64,000 nucleotides of DNA from an uncultured Alphaproteobacteria bacterium (GTDB taxonomy: Bacteria; Pseudomonadota; Alphaproteobacteria; Micavibrionales; Micavibrionaceae), in assembly GCA_937923625.1 (NCBI GenBank), contig CALDTV010000023.1, positions 1 through 64,000 on the forward strand, read 5' to 3'. How positions within the stretch are numbered: the first letter of the stretch is position 1; each line of letters starts with the position of its first letter. The notes under the pieces are model-generated. The model ran no database searches. It saw only the letters and a list, made by a program, of their open reading frames with translations, and had not been told where the DNA came from. Below, piece by piece: positions 5,755 to 63,894 of the stretch. The position numbers were made by a program, and so were the translations under genes.

Positions 5755-6915
5755 ATGATTATAAAAACTCAAGATGAGCTTAATAGTATTTGCGCCGAAT
5801 TGGCCACGCAGACTTATATCACCATAGATACCGAATTTTTACGGGATAAGACGTTTTATTCTAAGTTATGTCTTGTGCAGTTGGCAGCGCCTGACGTTGA
5901 TGCCGTGGCGGTTGATCCGATTGAATTTGATCTTGATTTAACGCCGCTGAATGATCTGCTACATAATGAAAATGTTCTAAAAGTTTTTCATGCGGCGCGG
6001 CAGGATTTAGAAATTTTTTATCAATTAAACGGTAAAATCCCTACGCCAATTTTTGACTCTCAAGTCGCGGCGATGGTCTGCGGCTATGGGGATAGCATCG
6101 CCTATAATAAGTTGGTGCAAGATATTACAGGACAGGCACTAGCCAAGAATGCGCAATTCACCGATTGGTCGCGCCGCCCGCTCACGGAAAAACAACTCAC
6201 CTATGCATTAAATGATGTGATTTATTTGCGCGATGTGTATGAGCGCCTTGCCGCGCGGCTTGAAAAACAAAATCGCGATCATTGGGTAAAGCAAGAGATG
6301 GAAATTCTCACAAATCCTGACACTTATGAAATGCCTTTGGAAACTATTTGGAAGCGAATCAAAATTCGCTCAGACAAGCCAGAAGTTTTAGCCGTTTTAC
6401 GAGATCTGGCGATATGGCGCGAAGAAATTGCGCGCCGCAAAGATATTCCACGCGGGCGCATTATGAAGGATGAGGCATTGGCGGATATTGCCGTTTATAT
6501 GCCAAAAGATACGGAAGGGTTAAGCCGTATTCGAAACGTACCGCGCGATGTATCAAAAAGCGCCACGGGCAAAACATTGCTGTCAATTGTTGCAAAGGCA
6601 CGCAAAACAGATAAATCTTTATGGCCCAAAAATGAGCGCAAAGCTCCCTTCCCACAGGAGGCTGTTCCAATTTTAGAGATGTTAAAATTATTGCTAAAAA
6701 TTAATTGCTCCCAGGAAAATGTTGCCGCAAAGTTAGTAGCCAACGTTAGTGATTTAGAAGACATAGCCGCAAATGATTCCCCCAGCTGCAACGCCATGAA
6801 AGGATGGCGGTTCGAAATTTTTGGCGCAGACGCAATGGCTCTTAAAAACGGTGAAATCACATTAGGCTTAAAAGACGGGAAAATGCATAAATATAAACAA
6901 GGTGAAGATGCCTAA
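5755..6915 (+). CDS. rnd: Ribonuclease D
   Basis: 386 residues, the usual RNase D length. It is a 3'-5' exoribonuclease that trims tRNA and other stable RNA precursors. The DEDDy catalytic set is visible: 'TIDTEFLRD' (Asp25, Glu27), 'HAARQDLEIF', and 'YALNDVIYLRDVY', which carries the Tyr and last Asp. An HRDC domain follows at about residues 210-290 ('LRDLAIWREEIARRKDIPRG'). A second, weaker HRDC-like segment may occupy the C-terminus. The stop overlaps the start of the SixA-like gene by 8 bases, implying translational coupling. Confidence 0.95.
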   Translation: MIIKTQDELNSICAELATQTYITIDTEFLRDKTFYSKLCLVQLAAPDVDAVAVDPIEFDLDLTPLNDLLHNENVLKVFHAARQDLEIFYQLNGKIPTPIFDSQVAAMVCGYGDSIAYNKLVQDITGQALAKNAQFTDWSRRPLTEKQLTYALNDVIYLRDVYERLAARLEKQNRDHWVKQEMEILTNPDTYEMPLETIWKRIKIRSDKPEVLAVLRDLAIWREEIARRKDIPRGRIMKDEALADIAVYMPKDTEGLSRIRNVPRDVSKSATGKTLLSIVAKARKTDKSLWPKNERKAPFPQEAVPILEMLKLLLKINCSQENVAAKLVANVSDLEDIAANDSPSCNAMKGWRFEIFGADAMALKNGEITLGLKDGKMHKYKQGEDA

Positions 6916-7393
6916 ACTTTATTTATTAAGACATGCACAAGCAGATATGGCCTATGGGATGGAGGATAAAAACCGCCCTTTGACACCGCATGGAATAACC
7001 CAAGCGACTTTAGTGGCCGCGCATTTAAAAGATATTAATGTTGTTTATTGCTCCGCGGCGGAGCGAACAAAAATGACTTTGCAGGCCGCCATAGATGGTG
7101 GTGCAGAGATAAAACGACATGAAATTATAGATAATTTTTACAACGCCCCTGCTGAAATTTTAAGGCAAAAAATTCTTGATAGCGATGCAGAGAATATTTT
7201 AATAATCGCGCATAATCCAGGCATACACCAGCTTGCCGCATCTTTAACGATGACGGGTGAAGAACAAAAACTTAATCAATTAATGTCAATGTACCCCCCT
7301 GCTAGTCTGTCTATTTTTGATTGTGATATAGAAGCGTGGAGCGATTTAAAATCATATCAAAATACGTTGATTGATTTTATCATACAGCCTTAG
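6908..7393 (+). CDS. SixA-like histidine phosphatase
   Basis: 161 residues from the ATG at 6908; a GTG at 6902 is also in frame, but the AGG at 6900-6902 is well spaced only for the ATG. The start 'LYLLRHAQAD' holds the RHG/RHA catalytic histidine of the histidine phosphatase superfamily, and 'IIAHNPGIH' holds the second active-site histidine, a pattern typical of SixA. SixA removes phosphate from His in phosphorelay or PTS-Ntr proteins. Overlap with rnd suggests one transcript. Its substrate here is unknown; the large hybrid kinase nearby carries an HPt domain, but a link is speculation. Confidence 0.85.
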   Translation: MPKLYLLRHAQADMAYGMEDKNRPLTPHGITQATLVAAHLKDINVVYCSAAERTKMTLQAAIDGGAEIKRHEIIDNFYNAPAEILRQKILDSDAENILIIAHNPGIHQLAASLTMTGEEQKLNQLMSMYPPASLSIFDCDIEAWSDLKSYQNTLIDFIIQP

Positions 7394-7396
7394 GCC

Positions 7397-7422
7397 ATCA
7401 TTATGAGGAATGTAATGATTTT
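7397..7422. terminator. Weak inverted repeat, possible shared terminator
   Basis: ATCATTA (7397-7403) pairs perfectly with TAATGAT (7413-7419) and is followed by three T. It sits between two convergent genes (SixA-like and hdaA). The stem is AT-only and weak, so terminator function is tentative. Confidence 0.3.
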
Positions 7423-8107
7423 AAGATTGAGGATTGAGAATTTCGCGTAAGAGCGGGATGGAGATTTTGCGCTTTTCAATCATAGCTTTTTGATCCGCTT
7501 GCTCCACCAAATCACGCACCGCTTCAAAAGATCTTTCGATACGCGGCAAGATATATGTCAGTACATCTGCCCCCACACGGATTTGACGATCAGAAAAATG
7601 TTTCACCAAAACAGCGCTTAAAAGCTGTTCATCTGGTTCGCGTATCGCCACAGAAGGCGCAGCACGCAATCGAGAAGCAAGGTCAGGTAAAGCAAAACTG
7701 CGGCGCACAGGGGGCTCCAGCAAGGTAATTAAAAAACTTTTTTGCTCTTCTTTAAAAATATTATAAAGATGAAATAAGCCCTTCTCCCCAACGATGTCAC
7801 CAATCAAATTATCGGCATCTTCGATAATCACATTTTGTTTTATATCGGCAATATCGCGGATCATATCTTCGTTAATATTGGCGGCCTTGACGCAAATAGC
7901 AGAAGATTTCTCTGCCCAAACAGCACCCAAATGTGTTTTACCGCTGGCTACAGGGCCATATAAAACCAAACATGGCGCAGGCCATTCAGGCCATAAATCA
8001 ATCCACGCCACCGCGTCATGATTGTTCGGCGCAACCAAAAAATCATGTCGCTCCAGCGCAGTGCGATGACCTAAATCAAGCGGGATTTGCCTTAATGCAT
8101 CAGCCAT
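7421..8107 (-). CDS. hdaA: HdaA, DnaA-related regulator of replication initiation
   Basis: 228 residues, the size of Hda/HdaA proteins, which consist of a DnaA-like AAA+ module without the DNA-binding domain. With the beta clamp they stimulate DnaA-ATP hydrolysis to prevent re-initiation. The start 'RQIPLDLGHR' resembles the clamp-binding QL/IPL-type motif. Walker A is 'YGPVASGKTH', Walker B is 'NVIIEDADNL', and a sensor-type 'LPDLASRLRA' block follows, as in Hda. It abuts the permease gene immediately upstream (8108), an arrangement common in alphaproteobacteria, so both are probably cotranscribed from the DUF2066 side. Confidence 0.9.
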   Translation of the reverse strand: MADALRQIPLDLGHRTALERHDFLVAPNNHDAVAWIDLWPEWPAPCLVLYGPVASGKTHLGAVWAEKSSAICVKAANINEDMIRDIADIKQNVIIEDADNLIGDIVGEKGLFHLYNIFKEEQKSFLITLLEPPVRRSFALPDLASRLRAAPSVAIREPDEQLLSAVLVKHFSDRQIRVGADVLTYILPRIERSFEAVRDLVEQADQKAMIEKRKISIPLLREILNPQS

Positions 8108-57631: not shown

Positions 57632-58591
57632 TTGGAGGGTGGCATCATTCAAAACCCTTTCTATTGCGGAAACATGAAAATTAAAGGTGAAATTCACCCT
57701 CACATATACGAAACCATCATCTCCCAAAACTTGTTTGATAAGTGCCAGATTGTTCGAACTAGTCGAGCACAAAACAGAACCATCACCACACAAAAAAAGC
57801 AGTTTTTGTTTAGCGGTCTCATTAAGTGTGCTGTATCAGACAGACAAGTAACCTGTGATTTGAAGAAAGGAAAATACGTCTACTTAATCTGTCGCAATCC
57901 AGAAAATCATAAGAAAAAGATGTGGATTCGTGAAAAAGACGTGCTTGAGCAAATTGAAACAGCACTGCAACCGTTGATGATACCAGACGAAGAAATTAAC
58001 ACTATTATTGCATATATTAAGAAAACCAGTGCATCAGAGCAGTCAGACCACCGTGATAACCAGCGCAAATACCGCAAAGAACTGTCAGATGTAGACACCC
58101 AGATTGACCGATTAACTGATTTGTTAGTTAATAATTACATCACAGAAGACGCTTACAGACGCAAATGTGCTCAATTACAAGTGCAACGTAATGAATTAGA
58201 TAAGCAACTAACAATCAGGCACATCACTGCGAAAGAAACTGAACAAGCGTTGATAAAGCTGGTTAAATTCATGAACAAAATAGAAGTTGTCATAAAAAGT
58301 TCGAAAAATGATCAAATACGCATGCTTCTAAAAACACTTTTTTCGAACTTGTATCTAAACGGACGAAACGTACGCTATGATTGGGTTTCGGGTATGTGGA
58401 AGGGCTGTAACGCAAGGTTAAATCAAGAATGGCTGGGGTGGCAGGATTCGAACCTGCGCATGCCGATACCAAAAACCAGTGCCTTACCGCTTGGCTACAC
58501 CCCAACAATTATAAAAGATCATGGTAAGATAGGCAGATCTTTTAACGAAAGGAAAATGGTGCCGCAAAGAGGATTCGAACCCCTGGCCTGA
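57632..58591 (+). pseudogene. Large serine recombinase remnant, 5'-truncated
   Basis: The readable frame starts inside the Recombinase domain ('GGIIQNPFYCGNMKIKGEIH', normally preceded by 200 or more residues including the catalytic resolvase domain), and a stop codon lies just upstream at 57626. The zinc ribbon ('LIKCAVSDRQVTC...YLICRNP') and the following coiled coil ('DTQIDRLTDLLVNNYITEDAY') are recognisable. After about base 58425 the frame runs through tRNA-Gln and into tRNA-Thr, so its last 50 residues are not recombinase. It cannot be catalytic. It marks an old integrated element. Confidence 0.8.
58430..58504 (-). tRNA. tRNA-Gln (anticodon UUG), CCA encoded
   Basis: The minus strand reads TGGGGTGTAGCCAAGCGGTA from base 58504, with acceptor stem TGGGGTG/CACCCCA, T-arm GGTTCGAATCC and encoded CCA. 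The anticodon loop is TTTTGGT, giving UUG. It resembles bacterial tRNA-Gln throughout. The recombinase remnant abuts its 3' end. Confidence 0.95.
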
Positions 58592-58632
58592 TGATTACAA
58601 ATCAACTGCTCTACCAACTGAGCTATTGCGGC
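58557..58632 (-). tRNA. tRNA-Thr (anticodon UGU), CCA encoded
   Basis: The minus strand reads GCCGCAATAGCTCAGTTGGT from base 58632, with acceptor stem GCCGCAA/TTGCGGC, anticodon loop TTTGTAA (UGU), T-arm GGTTCGAATCC and encoded CCA. It lies 52 bases upstream of tRNA-Gln in the same direction, so they are probably cotranscribed. Confidence 0.96.
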
Positions 58633-58835: not shown

Positions 58836-60047
58836 ATGGCAGACGGTAAAGCAGACGGCATGGCAGAAGCAGCCATAGGATGGGGAATGATCTTGATCGT
58901 TGTCGCAATTTGCCTTTTTATCGTCTATTACAACTTCAAACCAGAGGTGCACAGCTTCATTCGGTGGATTCGTTACGCGGAAATATGGCTTGTCACACTT
59001 TTCACGCCAGAGAGCTATATGGTCACCTTAAATAATGGTGACGAAATAAACCTGCATCAATGGGCTGAAGGTGTGAAGGATATTCCCAAGGAACGGATTG
59101 ACTTTAGATTACTCTCCGCCATCACCGAAGTTGCCTTAACACCTTTCAAATGGGTTATTGCTCTTATTATCGGGTTAATCGGGCTTTGGACTTACACAAA
59201 AGGCCCCAACACCCAATATACTGAAGTATTTAATCTGGATAGATTTATAAAATTCCAAGCAGGATTTTTTCCAATTATTGCCCCTTTTGTTAAATTTAAC
59301 CCAGGGAACCAACCGCCGCGCTCTCCCGGTTCACCTGTTCCAGCGGATCTGCCCCTTTTCGCCGAAGCTTTAGGACCAGAAGAATGGCTGGCTTATAATG
59401 AAGTTCCTGTGCCCGATGGTGTCATTGATCAAGATGTCGTGAGGCGCTGCTTTTCTAAACAACTTGGTCCACGTTGGCGTGGATGGCAAAAGATGCAACC
59501 CTACAAACAAATCTTACTGGCAGCGTTTTGCTTGAAAGCGAAAAGAAAAAGAGACCAGTCCGATGACCTTATGGGACGACTGGCTTTATGCTGGAGCCAT
59601 GATAAAGGCTTACAATTATCAAATGACAAAGGGCTTATCCGCGAAGCCAGAAAAATCCTAAAAAATAAAGATATGGCACATGCTGTCTTAAAAAAATGCA
59701 ACCAACATGCCTTTGAGACAACAGCGTTGATGCGTGGCCTTATGACAGCCCGTGAGGAGGGCGGCGTTCTTGCGCCTGCGCAGTTTGTTTGGCTTCGTGG
59801 ACATGACAGGCTTTTATGGTATCCGTTAAATAATTTAGGGCGTCAATCAAACCATATTGAAGCCATTGGTGCTGTGGCACATTTCAAATCAGAAAAACGT
59901 ACAGAGCGCCCGATACCAAAACCAAAAGTGGAAGACGCGATAACAAGTATTGTTAGCTATATGAACGAAGATCACGCGCGCCCTATCCCAACGTTGGATT
60001 ACAGCCAGTCAAAAAAGCGTGGCATTAAAAAACTAAAAGACACTTAA
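58836..60047 (+). CDS. dotM: DotM/IcmP, type IVB secretion coupling-complex protein
   Basis: 403 residues. Two or three membrane segments (about 12-32 and 105-122) precede a cytoplasmic domain whose C-terminal blocks 'HAFETTALMRGLMTAREEGG' and 'FVWLRGHDRLLWYPLNNLGR' are characteristic of DotM/IcmP. DotM binds acidic glutamate-rich effector signals and sits with the DotL ATPase in the Dot/Icm or IncI-type coupling complex. It heads a run of three plus-strand genes ending with dotL; no other dot/icm genes are in the window. Confidence 0.9.
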   Translation: MADGKADGMAEAAIGWGMILIVVAICLFIVYYNFKPEVHSFIRWIRYAEIWLVTLFTPESYMVTLNNGDEINLHQWAEGVKDIPKERIDFRLLSAITEVALTPFKWVIALIIGLIGLWTYTKGPNTQYTEVFNLDRFIKFQAGFFPIIAPFVKFNPGNQPPRSPGSPVPADLPLFAEALGPEEWLAYNEVPVPDGVIDQDVVRRCFSKQLGPRWRGWQKMQPYKQILLAAFCLKAKRKRDQSDDLMGRLALCWSHDKGLQLSNDKGLIREARKILKNKDMAHAVLKKCNQHAFETTALMRGLMTAREEGGVLAPAQFVWLRGHDRLLWYPLNNLGRQSNHIEAIGAVAHFKSEKRTERPIPKPKVEDAITSIVSYMNEDHARPIPTLDYSQSKKRGIKKLKDT

Positions 60048-60067
60048 ACATACACATATGAGACAAA

Positions 60068-60655
60068 ATGAATTTTCTTTATAAAAATAAAAAATTAAAC
60101 AGTCAAAGCACAGCAGAAGTTGTCGACAACCATCTTATCTTGTCCGCCCCCAATGCAATTGACCCTGTCATGTGGCGTATGTCCTTAGAAAAAATTGGCA
60201 CAGCCGCTTTTGAGGTAAAATCAGATAACGACACAGAAAAATTCAAACTTCTTTTAAAACCTAAGAAAGGAACAGCAGAAATTATCGCAGTCTTTTCTTC
60301 AAAAGAAGAAGCCGTAGAGGCATTAATTGCATCATCAAACGCCATGCAAAGCGCCATCAATTTGAACGCATCTTCATCTAAAAGCACTATCGCTTCTGAT
60401 ATAGCGGATCACAAAAGCCAAAACAACGCGCACATAACATCTAATGCCCCTCGTAAGCAAGGCAGCGGAAGATGGTTCATCGTACTTATGGGCTTAGTTA
60501 TCGTTTCAGGATTATATTTTTACCTCAATACATTGATGCCAACGACCACCGCCATCGGACAATCAACATCACAAAGCAGCAATATTATAACAGACCCATC
60601 GCAGACGATTGGTAAACCAGTCTCAGCAGATGATTTTTTAAATAGTTTACAGTAG
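60068..60655 (+). CDS. Single-span protein between dotM and dotL, family not recognised
   Basis: 195 residues. An N-terminal soluble domain (1-105, mixed alpha/beta, 'LILSAPNAIDPVMWRMSLEK', 'IIAVFSSKEEAVEALIASSN') is followed by a polar linker and one membrane span at 136-153 ('WFIVLMGLVIVSGLYFYL'), then a 40-residue Ser/Thr-rich tail. No signal peptide, so the N-terminus is probably cytoplasmic. It is 20 bases after dotM and 50 before dotL, so it probably belongs to the same transcript. In Legionella dotM and dotL are adjacent without such a gene. I do not recognise it as a Dot/Icm subunit. Confidence 0.75.
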   Translation: MNFLYKNKKLNSQSTAEVVDNHLILSAPNAIDPVMWRMSLEKIGTAAFEVKSDNDTEKFKLLLKPKKGTAEIIAVFSSKEEAVEALIASSNAMQSAINLNASSSKSTIASDIADHKSQNNAHITSNAPRKQGSGRWFIVLMGLVIVSGLYFYLNTLMPTTTAIGQSTSQSSNIITDPSQTIGKPVSADDFLNSLQ

Positions 60656-60705: not shown

Positions 60706-63027
60706 ATGGCTCTCGATAGAAAACGGTTTGGATATGGGAAGAAGGATGTCGTTCGCGATATTCGTCCACTATATGTCCGTTTTGGTGATTGGTTACAATT
60801 ACCCGCCAATGCTTTGGGTATTTGCCTTATTGGCGTTGGCCTTTTCTTTTTTGTTCCCTCTTCGGTTCTCTACGCAGATATCGTCTTAATAATCTATCTG
60901 CTATTTTTTTGGTGGTTAAAGACGCGAGATCGTAAATTACCTGGAAAAATGCCTGTCGGGGCCCCGTATAAAGACACCAATAATATGGGCCCTGGAAAAA
61001 ATGGCACGCCAGAGGGGATTCTTTTTATTGGGAATGAAAAAAAGACGAAACAACAAATTTGGTATTCAAACTCTGATGCTAGAACACATATTCTTTACCT
61101 CGGGACAACAGGTTCTGGAAAAACGGAAGGGTTAAAGTCGTTTGTGACCAGCGCTCTTTCATGGGGGTCTGGTTGGGTTTATATTGATGGTAAAGCCGAT
61201 ACAGATTTGTGGTCTTCACTTTCTGCATTAATCCGCCGCTTTGGGCGTGACGATGATTTGCTTGTGTTGAACTATATGACGGGTAACTCCGATGCGCGCG
61301 CGCCATCCAACACCATGAACCCGTTCTCAAGTGGTTCTGCTTCTTATTTGGCGCAAATGTTGATCACTCTAATGCCTGAGGCAGAAGGTGACAACGCGAT
61401 GTGGAAAGAACGTGCGGTATCGCTCTTAAGCTCACTTATGCCTGCTTTGACTTGGAAACGTGACAACCAAGACTTCCCTCTTTCTGTTAATTCTATTCGT
61501 AATTACCTTGGCTTAAATTACATTATTATGCTCTCTCGTGATGAAGCGATTCCCGAAAAAATTCGTGAAGGACTCGTGGGTTATTTAGATACGCTTCCGG
61601 GCTATGCTGAAGACGCGTTTGATGACCAAGGAAAAGAAAAACCTATGGGGCCTGATCAACCGATGGTTGATACAACAACTGTTCGCCAGCAGCACGGCTA
61701 TTTGACCATGCAATTTACACGTGCCCTACAGTCACTCGGGGATGATTACGGTTATATTTTTGACACGCCTGCGGCGGATGTTGACATGATTGATGTTGTT
61801 CTAAACCGACGCTTTTTAATTGTTCTTATTCCTGCGCTTGAAAAATCAGGTGATGAAACAGCCAACCTCGGTAAGATTGTTGCCGCAACTCTAAAAGGAA
61901 TGATGGGATCGACCTTGGGCTCGACCCTTGAGGGGGAAAGCACCACAGTTATTGAGAATAAACCAACCCATTCCGCCACCCCATTTATGACGGTTTTTGA
62001 TGAGGTTGGTTATTATACCTCCCAAGGGATGGCAGTCATGGCCGCGCAAGCGCGTTCCCTTGGATTTTGTTTATGTTTTGCGGCGCAGGACTTACAAGCG
62101 ATGGAAAAGCGGGTGAAAGAAGAAGCACGCTCCATCACCGCCAACTGTAACATCAAAATTTTTGGTAAACTGCAAGATCCGACGCAAACCCGTGAGTTTT
62201 TTGAAAACCACATTGGTAAAGACTACATCGCAAAAGTATCCAGCCTCCAGCTTTCTGGCGGCATGTCAACAGGATCATATAAAGATACCCAGCAAGCCAG
62301 TATTGAAACAGGAACGCGTGCCGATTATGATGATTTGAAAGATATGAAAGAGGGCGAGGCCATCATCTCTTTCGCAATGGATGTTTTAGAGGCTAATATT
62401 TTCTATTCCAACCCAGGTCACGCCAAAGCCATGCGTGTTGCGCGTTTTCTTGCCCTTCCTGAGCCAGATGAAATTTACGCCAAGCACGCCACACAAATTA
62501 CCAAATTGCGCGACCTACTTTGCAACAAAAACTGGACAGCAATGAAGGCAGACGTTGCCGTAGAGACCCCAAAAGAAATTGAGGCCCTTAAGGCGGGATT
62601 TGATATGGGTGTGAGCGCCTATGACGATCCAATTGATCATGGAATTACAGCCGTCAGCGACCTGCACGCCAAATTATTCCCCGTTGAGGCACAAGAAGCA
62701 ATACGCGCAATTGCGTTAGGACAACAAGAGCAAACTGCACCAGCCGCCGCCCCCACCGCCCAAGTTCCAGCTACACCAGCCCCAACAGCTATAGCGCCGT
62801 CTGCGCAAAATGCTGCTCCTGTAGCGCCACCAGTAACGCAAACAACCGCACCAGCCGAAGCGCCTGCCGTTGAAAATATTATTCCTCAAACCTCAGCCCC
62901 TGTACAAGCGATCAAAAAGCAATTAAGTGCTGATGTTGAAAAGATTTTGGGGGATGCGGGTCAAAACTTACGCTCTTCTTTAATTAAATCGGATGATAAA
63001 GACGCGCCAATAGATGCCGCAGAGTAG
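60706..63027 (+). CDS. dotL: DotL/IcmO, type IV coupling ATPase
   Basis: 773 residues. Two N-terminal membrane spans (about 36-72), Walker A 'GTTGSGKT' at 133-140 and Walker B 'TVFDEVGYY' (Asp432-Glu433), followed by 'FAAQDLQAME', are those of DotL-type VirD4-family ATPases that recruit substrates to type IVB systems. The C-terminus, from about residue 670, is a Pro/Ala-rich linker plus a short helix, where Legionella DotL carries its adaptor-binding (IcmSW, LvgA) extension; no adaptor gene is visible here. It lies 50 bases after the unknown single-span gene. Confidence 0.93.
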   Translation: MALDRKRFGYGKKDVVRDIRPLYVRFGDWLQLPANALGICLIGVGLFFFVPSSVLYADIVLIIYLLFFWWLKTRDRKLPGKMPVGAPYKDTNNMGPGKNGTPEGILFIGNEKKTKQQIWYSNSDARTHILYLGTTGSGKTEGLKSFVTSALSWGSGWVYIDGKADTDLWSSLSALIRRFGRDDDLLVLNYMTGNSDARAPSNTMNPFSSGSASYLAQMLITLMPEAEGDNAMWKERAVSLLSSLMPALTWKRDNQDFPLSVNSIRNYLGLNYIIMLSRDEAIPEKIREGLVGYLDTLPGYAEDAFDDQGKEKPMGPDQPMVDTTTVRQQHGYLTMQFTRALQSLGDDYGYIFDTPAADVDMIDVVLNRRFLIVLIPALEKSGDETANLGKIVAATLKGMMGSTLGSTLEGESTTVIENKPTHSATPFMTVFDEVGYYTSQGMAVMAAQARSLGFCLCFAAQDLQAMEKRVKEEARSITANCNIKIFGKLQDPTQTREFFENHIGKDYIAKVSSLQLSGGMSTGSYKDTQQASIETGTRADYDDLKDMKEGEAIISFAMDVLEANIFYSNPGHAKAMRVARFLALPEPDEIYAKHATQITKLRDLLCNKNWTAMKADVAVETPKEIEALKAGFDMGVSAYDDPIDHGITAVSDLHAKLFPVEAQEAIRAIALGQQEQTAPAAAPTAQVPATPAPTAIAPSAQNAAPVAPPVTQTTAPAEAPAVENIIPQTSAPVQAIKKQLSADVEKILGDAGQNLRSSLIKSDDKDAPIDAAE

Positions 63028-63219: not shown

Positions 63220-63894
63220 ATGGCTCGCCAAGCACGGATTGTTCTTTCAAATACGCCCCATCATATTACCCAACGTGGCAACCGTGGGGAGCCAGTATTT
63301 TTTGAAAAATCTGACTATCGAAGCTATCTTGATATATTAATCGAGCAATGTACGCGTTTTGATATAAAACTATTAAGCTATTGTTTATTACCAAACCAAG
63401 TACATCTTATTGCAATCCCCCAAGATGCTGAAATTCTTGCGCGCGCCATCGGTGAAAGCCACCGACGTTATAGCTGTTTCATTAACAATCGCCACAATTG
63501 GCGCGGTCATTTATTTCAAGACCGCTTTTTTTCTTATGCTATGGATGAGCCGACAACACTTCGCGCAGCACGTTTTATCGAAACCTTGCCCGTTACTTTG
63601 AAAATAACACCCAATCCAGAAAACTACCTTTGGAGCAGTGCCAAAAGCCGTATAAAGATTATACAAAACACGGTTATTCAACCCTATGGTTATTTCGATA
63701 CTATTGATAATTGGGAAGATTTTTTAAAGCGCCCTATTGACCCTCAAGAAATGAACCAAATTCAGCTTCATTTGCAAACAGGTCGCCCACGTGGATCAGA
63801 AACATTTTTAGACAATATTGAAAATAAGATAGGCCGCATTGTTCGACCACAAAAACGCGGCCGCAAACCAAAGAATCCCAAAAAAGCCGCCTAA
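63220..63894 (+). CDS. REP-associated (Y1/HUH) transposase with altered HUH motif
   Basis: 224 residues, starting 'MARQARIVLSNTPHHITQRG', the usual start of REP-associated tyrosine transposases. 'EKSDYRSYLDIL', 'GESHRRYSCFINNRHNWRGHLFQDRFFSYAMDEP' (in pieces) and the 'TGRPRGSETFLDNIENKIGR' to 'KRGRKPKNP' C-terminus are typical. The metal site normally P-N-H-V-H reads P-N-Q60-V-H62, losing one histidine of the HUH pair, so single-strand nicking may be impaired. No flanking palindromic REP-like repeats or target duplication were seen. Confidence 0.85.
   Translation: MARQARIVLSNTPHHITQRGNRGEPVFFEKSDYRSYLDILIEQCTRFDIKLLSYCLLPNQVHLIAIPQDAEILARAIGESHRRYSCFINNRHNWRGHLFQDRFFSYAMDEPTTLRAARFIETLPVTLKITPNPENYLWSSAKSRIKIIQNTVIQPYGYFDTIDNWEDFLKRPIDPQEMNQIQLHLQTGRPRGSETFLDNIENKIGRIVRPQKRGRKPKNPKKAA

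What the first reader, a model, noticed from the sequence alone, without database searches (positions are those of the whole stretch)
60068..60655. Unrecognised membrane protein embedded between DotM and DotL
DotM and DotL are partners of the type IVB coupling complex and are neighbours in Legionella. Here a 195-residue protein with a cytoplasmic-type N-domain and one late membrane span sits between them with tight spacing. It may be a lineage-specific coupling-complex subunit, for instance a substitute for adaptor-binding parts, since DotL here has only a short Pro/Ala-rich tail.
Basis: partly seen in the sequence, partly recalled or inferred. Interest (0 to 1): 0.65.

Follow-up and report, generated by a model that had tools for sequence, protein, structure and literature searches.

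The report
TrbB-like protein between DotM and DotL
A small unnamed membrane protein encoded between two parts of a bacterial injection machine is conserved across a whole order of bacteria and shares its inner half with TrbB, a plasmid-transfer protein of unsettled function, so it is probably a real and overlooked part of the machine's loading platform.

Summary
The 195-residue gene X is real (60068-60655), 20 nt after dotM and 50 nt before dotL. It is not cargo: a profile finds it in 51 of 58 genomes of the order, DotM in 54 of 58, and 47 of the 51 lie directly downstream of dotM. Class-wide it is in 11 of 385 genomes, all among the 14 with DotM. No Pfam or NCBIfam family reaches its cut-off. 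Anatomy: N-domain (six strands and a helix in AlphaFold2, PH-like in outline), one membrane span, tail ending GxPxSADDFL. The N-domain is homologous to that of TrbB, encoded between TrbA (DotM) and TrbC (DotL) on IncI/IncK/IncL-M plasmids (hhalign 93%; without the span 86%, and 0 of 199 column shuffles reach that score). X lacks TrbB's thioredoxin-like part; a DsbG-like gene sits separately in the secretion cluster. Published trbB mutants transfer poorly or not at all. Best reading: a membrane accessory subunit of the DotL-DotM-DotN coupling complex, a thioredoxin-less TrbB variant; contact with DotL/DotM is inferred. One genus has a PF14373 protein in the slot with a weakly similar tail.

The parts
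60068..60655 (+). gene X, 195 aa single-span membrane protein between dotM and dotL
   Evidence: relatives
60110..60367 (+). N-domain, residues 15-100: six strands and a helix; homologous to the N-domain of IncI/IncK/IncL-M TrbB
   Evidence: AlphaFold2 pLDDT 81 on a two-sequence alignment; hhalign 93%, 86%/80% without the span, controls
60479..60535 (+). membrane span, residues 138-156
   Evidence: hydropathy 1.94, K/R 3 before and 0 after
60611..60640 (+). C-terminal tail motif GKPVSADDFL, residues 182-191, predicted periplasmic
   Evidence: alignment; G.P..AD in the last 25 residues of 34 of 42 members
58836..60047 (+). dotM
   Evidence: PF23127, E 6.1e-50
60706..63027 (+). dotL (type IVB coupling ATPase, TrbC-like)
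   Evidence: NF041447, E 2.6e-117, under its cut-off; TrwB_AAD_bind and TraG-D_C

Best explanation
X is an inner-membrane accessory protein of the type IVB (MPF_I) coupling complex, a thioredoxin-less variant of TrbB. Shown by sequence: same gene slot between DotM and DotL, homologous N-domain, one span, close co-occurrence with DotM, a conserved C-terminal tail, and much of a type IVB system in the same genome. Inferred: the cytoplasmic N-domain packs on membrane-proximal parts of DotM/DotL and, with the span, helps hold the coupling complex at the base of the channel, while the periplasmic GxPxSADDFL tail is a short docking peptide for an envelope partner. TrbB joins N-domain, span and a DsbC-like domain in one chain; here a DsbG-like enzyme is a separate gene of the secretion cluster, so one candidate tail partner is that enzyme (fusion argument), others are the inner-membrane and periplasmic Dot proteins.
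For: X in 51 and DotM in 54 of the same 58 order genomes, both in 50; 47 of 51 directly downstream of dotM. In the three genomes where dotM is elsewhere (G025, G032, G048) X stays next to dotL. Class: 11 of 385, all 11 within the 14 with DotM. TrbB N-domain homology: hhalign 93%, 86% without the span; 199 column shuffles at most 5.7%, reversed 0.3%; 13 DotM/DotL windows at most 1.2%. Among 2744 ORFs the TrbB-N model at E<=5 hits only TrbBs and X proteins. Coupling partner DotN (NF038221) is in the same genome. Published: trbB deletion abolishes transfer in pCTX-M3 and lowers it in R64 (PMC6112013, passages) and in pMS7163B (PMC10286972, passages).
Against: No interaction data. The TrbB match is statistical: the first attempt with 4 TrbBs was negative (2.6%), and the 31 X of the window's own family alone give 27.7%. 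G036 and G275 have DotM without X; G172 has dotM-X without dotL beside it. Slot proteins of Pseudomonas and Acetobacteraceae-type plasmids show no detectable homology to X, and the Alteromonas plasmid has no gene between dotM and dotL. X and the DsbG-like gene do not co-occur perfectly. PH-like resemblance is weak (best Z 5.9; no Foldseek match at E<=0.001).
Confidence: 0.62

Rival explanations
1. X is a type IVB protein of the dotM-dotL operon that acts outside the coupling complex, for example as a scaffold that places the separate DsbG-like isomerase or another periplasmic protein at the secretion site.
For: TrbB carries a thioredoxin-like domain in the same chain; the DsbG-like gene heads the secretion cluster and is in 54 of 58 order genomes; in the 20 loci looked at it is next to the same cluster gene.
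Against: X and DsbG part ways: G029, G039, G050 have X without a DsbG match; G003, G008, G052 have DsbG without X or DotM; G044, G053, G056 have DsbG with the PF14373 protein instead. The gene sits with dotM and dotL, not with DsbG.
Confidence: 0.22
2. X has no common ancestry with TrbB; both are unrelated small proteins that took the same slot and X is specific to alphaproteobacteria.
For: Near X alone give only 27.7%; slot proteins elsewhere are not homologous; genus g35 shows that the slot can be filled by a different protein.
Against: 93% with full sets, shuffle, reversal, leave-one-out and decoy controls; two-way HMM hits without decoys among the hits printed.
Confidence: 0.12
3. Mobile or accessory cargo that landed between dotM and dotL.
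For: A partial serine recombinase, two tRNA genes and an IS200-like transposase flank the locus in this genome.
Against: Order and strand kept in 47 of 51 genomes; no plasmid or phage match for X.
Confidence: 0.01

Closest known systems
TrbB of IncI/IncK/IncL-M (MPF_I) conjugative plasmids
   Same: Gene between the DotM homologue TrbA and the DotL homologue TrbC; homologous N-domain followed by a span.
   Different: TrbB has a long periplasmic part annotated as DsbC-like or thioredoxin-fold; X has a 39-residue tail, no cysteine and no thioredoxin match.
Slot proteins of alphaproteobacterial and pseudomonad MPF_I plasmids
   Same: Between dotM and dotL, one span, tail with a short C-terminal motif (FGL in six alphaproteobacterial ones).
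   Different: No detectable sequence homology to X or TrbB.
Legionella coupling-complex proteins DotY, DotZ, DotN, IcmS, IcmW, LvgA
   Same: Accessories of DotL/DotM (PMC7280309, PMC12857230, passages).
   Different: X has a predicted span and its profile matched none of their PDB chains at E<=10; DotN is a separate gene here.
PH/PTB/FERM-F3 superfold
   Same: Most of the 50 rows for the N-domain model are of this kind.
   Different: Best Z 5.9 over 83 residues, rmsd 3.9; six strands in the model; no sequence link.

Membership tests
TrbB (IncI/IncK/IncL-M type) | encoded between the DotM and DotL homologues | tested here: met
   window layout and relatives
TrbB (IncI/IncK/IncL-M type) | N-terminal domain followed by one membrane span | tested here: met
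   hhalign 93%, 86% and 80% in the two directions without the span, controls; span
TrbB (IncI/IncK/IncL-M type) | periplasmic thioredoxin/DsbC-like domain | tested here: not met
   39 residues after the span, no cysteine, no such Pfam match. X is therefore not filed as TrbB but as a thioredoxin-less variant sharing its inner part
Type IVB coupling complex subunit | physical association with DotL/DotM/DotN | not testable with these tools
   no multimer prediction or experiment available
Type IVB coupling complex subunit | co-occurrence and linkage with dotM and dotL | tested here: met
   50 of 54 DotM-positive order genomes have X; 47 of 51 X adjacent to dotM
DotY/DotZ/IcmS/IcmW/LvgA | sequence relation to the solved Legionella proteins | tested here: inconclusive
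   profile A1 matched none of them in PDB sequences at E<=10; remote relation not excluded
PH superfold | fold | tested here: inconclusive
   best Z 5.9; Foldseek best E 0.014
PF14373 Imm_superinfect | PF14373 domain | tested here: not met
   absent in X; present in the slot proteins of G053 (1.9e-16) and G044 (8.8e-17)

The most novel reading that the evidence does not exclude
Many MPF_I/type IVB machines, conjugative or not, encode between DotM and DotL a single-span slot subunit of the coupling complex that went unrecognised because only its variable outer end was ever named. The inner half is a conserved PH-like adaptor sitting on DotL/DotM; the outer half is interchangeable (thioredoxin-like domain in IncI/IncL-M, SADDFL tail in this order, FGL tail in Acetobacteraceae-type plasmids) and links substrate loading in the cytoplasm to an event in the periplasm. 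In one genus even the inner half is swapped for a PF14373 membrane domain while a similar tail is kept.
Probability: 0.35. Interest if true: 0.75.

Novelty: new variant of a known kind. Interest (0 to 1): 0.57.

Why it matters
TrbB is needed for full transfer of IncI/IncL-M-type plasmids, yet its role is stated as still to be elucidated, and the coupling-complex model published for pOXA-48 contains TrbA, TrbC and a DotN-like protein (PMC12365149, passages). A natural relative that has only the inner domain, span and a short tail shows that evolution can drop the thioredoxin part while keeping the inner domain and the gene slot. That makes a clear test possible: is it the N-domain and anchor, not the disulfide chemistry, that the coupling complex needs? 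It also gives a profile to an unannotated gene of type IVB systems in small-genome alphaproteobacteria.

Tried and rejected
Searches that led nowhere: X or its alignment against Pfam, NCBIfam and PDB sequences, X against plasmids and phages. The best PDB-sequence match, mitochondrial IF-3 (E 0.0072, profile positions 68-123), was judged chance and not followed. The first TrbB-N comparison, with 4 TrbBs, was negative (2.6%). The full-length AlphaFold2 model (pLDDT 66.5) was replaced by an N-domain model (81.4). Foldseek gave no match at E<=0.001 for either. DNA pattern for the tail peptide in the own genome: 4 matches; one is X, one is internal to a 319-residue protein (L082), and near the other two no picked ORF of 60 residues or more carries the peptide. 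No name for the Pseudomonas or Acetobacteraceae slot proteins. Rows dropped: L004 was left out of A1 (29 of 30 distinct members); L031 was dropped before the tail count as a copy of L002; one of 200 shuffles did not run. Not tested: IcmS/IcmW/LvgA genome-wide; adjacency of dotM and dotL in Legionella (recalled); whether this order is Micavibrionales, which I guess only from genome sizes and from PMC9418006, where type IVB-like systems are reported in seven marine Micavibrionales (passages).

Full report
OBSERVATION. The ORF is at 60068-60655 (+), 195 residues, ATG start, 20 nt after dotM (58836-60047) and 50 nt before dotL (60706-63027). DotM is recognised by PF23127 (170 bits, cut-off 27). 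DotL best matches NF041447, the TrbC family of IncI type (393 bits, cut-off 800). The protein, here X, reaches no Pfam or NCBIfam cut-off; of the 25 Pfam families shown for 29 aligned members at E<=1, none is matched by more than 2 members.

CONSERVATION. With X alone, 48 of 58 genomes of the same order match. With a 17-row profile, 51 of 58 match; of the three gained, G041 and G050 were rows of that profile and G018 was not. DotM is in 54 of the same 58: both in 50, X alone in 1 (G018), DotM alone in 4, neither in 3 (G003, G008, G052). Of the 51 X, 47 lie 70-240 nt downstream of the end of the DotM_C hit on the same strand (from the coordinates). The others: G032 (DotM 51 kb away), G025 and G048 (DotM on another contig), each with dotL right after X, and G018, where X is a fragment at the first bases of a contig, followed by dotL. 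In loci L001-L031 (L031 and L002 look like the same record), a DotM match lies upstream in 30 of 31 and a DotL match downstream in 31 of 31, one of them (L012) a weak match of 79 aligned residues at a contig end. In a class-wide sample DotM is in 14 of 385 genomes and X in 11 of 385, all 11 within the 14; six of the 11 were rows of that profile, and the earlier order-only profile had found 9. Four of the 385 are from the window's own family.

DOTM WITHOUT X. In the order: G036 (no dotL or X beside dotM in the stretch read) and G044, G053, G056, all of genus g35. These three have in the slot a protein of about 140 residues; the two scanned carry PF14373 (G053 E 1.9e-16, G044 8.8e-17). Their tails end GVPEPANDILGK, GIPTPAGDLLGQ and GAIPAPASELLGK. 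Scored with a matrix from X tails, 9, 12 and 340 of 20,000 shuffles of the last 40 residues reach the observed score for G044, G053 and G056; the third is weak, the three are close relatives, and all three score below 41 of the 42 X tails. X proteins of other genera of the same family f3 end GEPVPADQLFGGGK (G050) and GTAVPADEFFR (G038), which look similar. In the class sample, G146 and G274 have an unmatched protein with one hydrophobic stretch in the slot, judged by eye, and G275 has no dotL beside dotM and no X match. G172 has dotM and X but no dotL beside them.

ANATOMY. The alignment shows a conserved N-domain, a variable linker, one span and a variable stretch ending in a conserved motif. 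All 31 members have a hydrophobic span; 27 have more K/R before than after it, three are tied (L005, L007, L022) and one is reversed (L020). The strict tail pattern G.P..AD is in the last 25 residues of 34 of 42 members, a looser form in 41 of 42. AlphaFold2 on the window N-domain with one relative gives pLDDT 81.4 and six strands and a helix. Most of the 50 structural rows are PH, PTB or FERM domains, best Z 5.9 over 83 residues, rmsd 3.9; the tool's note says such Z may mean only a common arrangement. Foldseek had no match at E<=0.001.

THE TRBB LINK. On IncI/IncK/IncL-M-type plasmids the gene between the DotM and DotL homologues is trbB (for example). The N-terminal part with span of 12 TrbBs was aligned with that of 43 X sequences (42 distinct). 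hhalign: 93.1%, one-against-one E 3.2e-7, 80 columns inside the N-domain. An earlier comparison with 4 TrbBs was negative (2.6%). Without the span: 86.1% in one direction and 79.7% in the other, 76 columns. Controls: 199 of 200 column shuffles ran, best 5.7% and best score 18.1 against 33.4; reversed 0.3%; dropping any one TrbB 68.8-91.3%; the 12 X from outside the window's set (six of the order, six of the class) 90.5%; the 31 X of the window's own family 27.7%. Thirteen windows of DotM and DotL give at most 1.2%. Against 2744 ORFs of the fetched loci, the TrbB-N model at E<=5 hits the 12 TrbBs used to build it and X proteins of two genomes (G048 at 7.2e-6; G157 at 0.0043) and nothing else; for the X-N model only the 25 weakest hits were printed, and they are X proteins plus the IncL/M TrbB at 0.0018.

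BEYOND. In a phylum sample DotM is in 5 of 398 genomes, three of them outside the class. Each of the three has a longer protein after dotM; one matches the TrbB-N model (4.1e-14) and two do not at E<=1; one of the latter has a thioredoxin-like match just under cut-off. Adding the three leaves the comparison at 93.0%. Of 12 non-TrbB plasmid loci read (L088-L091, L093, L095, L096, L098-L102), seven have a slot protein with a predicted span and an eighth (L090) an unannotated ORF of that kind seen by eye. Alteromonas L093 has no gene between dotM and dotL, Acinetobacter L095 and Gluconobacter L101 have other arrangements, and Lichenicola L098 is unclear. Pseudomonas slot proteins (2.6%) and Acetobacteraceae-type ones (3.2%) do not match X, so there only position and layout agree.

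THE REST OF THE MACHINE. Contig C7 of the same genome carries DotH (PF12293), DotI and DotN over their NCBIfam cut-offs and DotG under it, IcmT over and DotB under cut-off, DotD by Pfam, a 999-residue protein with a weak VirB4 match that I take for DotO, and a 298-residue gene that I take for DotC from its place only. A DsbG-like gene (NF008657) lies at the head of that run of genes. It is in 54 of 58 order genomes, and in the 20 loci returned it is next to the same 385-residue neighbour gene (20 of 20). TrbB thus looks like X's inner half joined to such an enzyme. Against a tight link: G029, G039 and G050 have X without a DsbG match, and G003, G008 and G052 have DsbG without X.

MECHANISM. 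Shown: gene, slot, co-occurrence, domain homology, tail conservation. From papers: trbB deletion abolished transfer in pCTX-M3, and trbB is needed for high efficiency in R64 (PMC6112013, passages); a trbB mutant of pMS7163B transfers less, while its transposon data only approached significance (PMC10286972, passages); for pOXA-48 TrbB is named among components whose exact roles remain to be elucidated, and the model of the coupling complex used TrbA, TrbC and a DotN-like protein (PMC12365149, passages). Inferred: X is a membrane-anchored accessory of the DotL-DotM-DotN complex, its N-domain on the cytoplasmic side near the membrane and its tail docking in the periplasm.

NOVELTY. Nine searches of the held library listed no title or abstract start about this protein or a conserved TrbB N-domain; I saw listings, and passages of eight papers. 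The R64 trbABC paper itself was seen only as a reference. [quoted passage not shown] whether that organism belongs to this order was not tested.

Noticed in passing
L057 2950-3372; L059 and L060 between dotM and dotL (genomes G044, G053, G056): In one genus the slot gene encodes a PF14373 (superinfection immunity) membrane protein with a C-terminal tail that resembles the X tail, as if the N-domain had been swapped.
   Followed up: partly
window 57632-58591, 58430-58504, 58557-58632, 63220-63894: dotM-X-dotL is flanked by a partial serine recombinase, tRNA-Gln and tRNA-Thr upstream and an IS200-like (Y1) transposase gene downstream.
   Followed up: no
L080 13733-14434: The DotN homologue also matches the RNA-guided endonuclease IscB model at its C-terminal part (E 3.1e-7, under cut-off).
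   Followed up: no
L081 15712-16866: A 385-residue gene without a family match lies between the DsbG-like and lytic transglycosylase genes of the secretion cluster; a relative is next to DsbG in 20 of 20 loci.
   Followed up: partly
L081 97-5886: Four consecutive genes of 433-591 residues with signal-like N-termini, three of them visibly cysteine-rich, in the secretion cluster; function unknown (the first gave no NCBIfam match).
   Followed up: no
L088 7173-7646, L089 6872-7477, L090 about 6890-7510, L099 5230-5697, L100 5101-5520, L102 5200-5502: Slot proteins of six alphaproteobacterial plasmids share a C-terminal FGL motif after a Pro-rich stretch, a different tail in the same position.
   Followed up: partly
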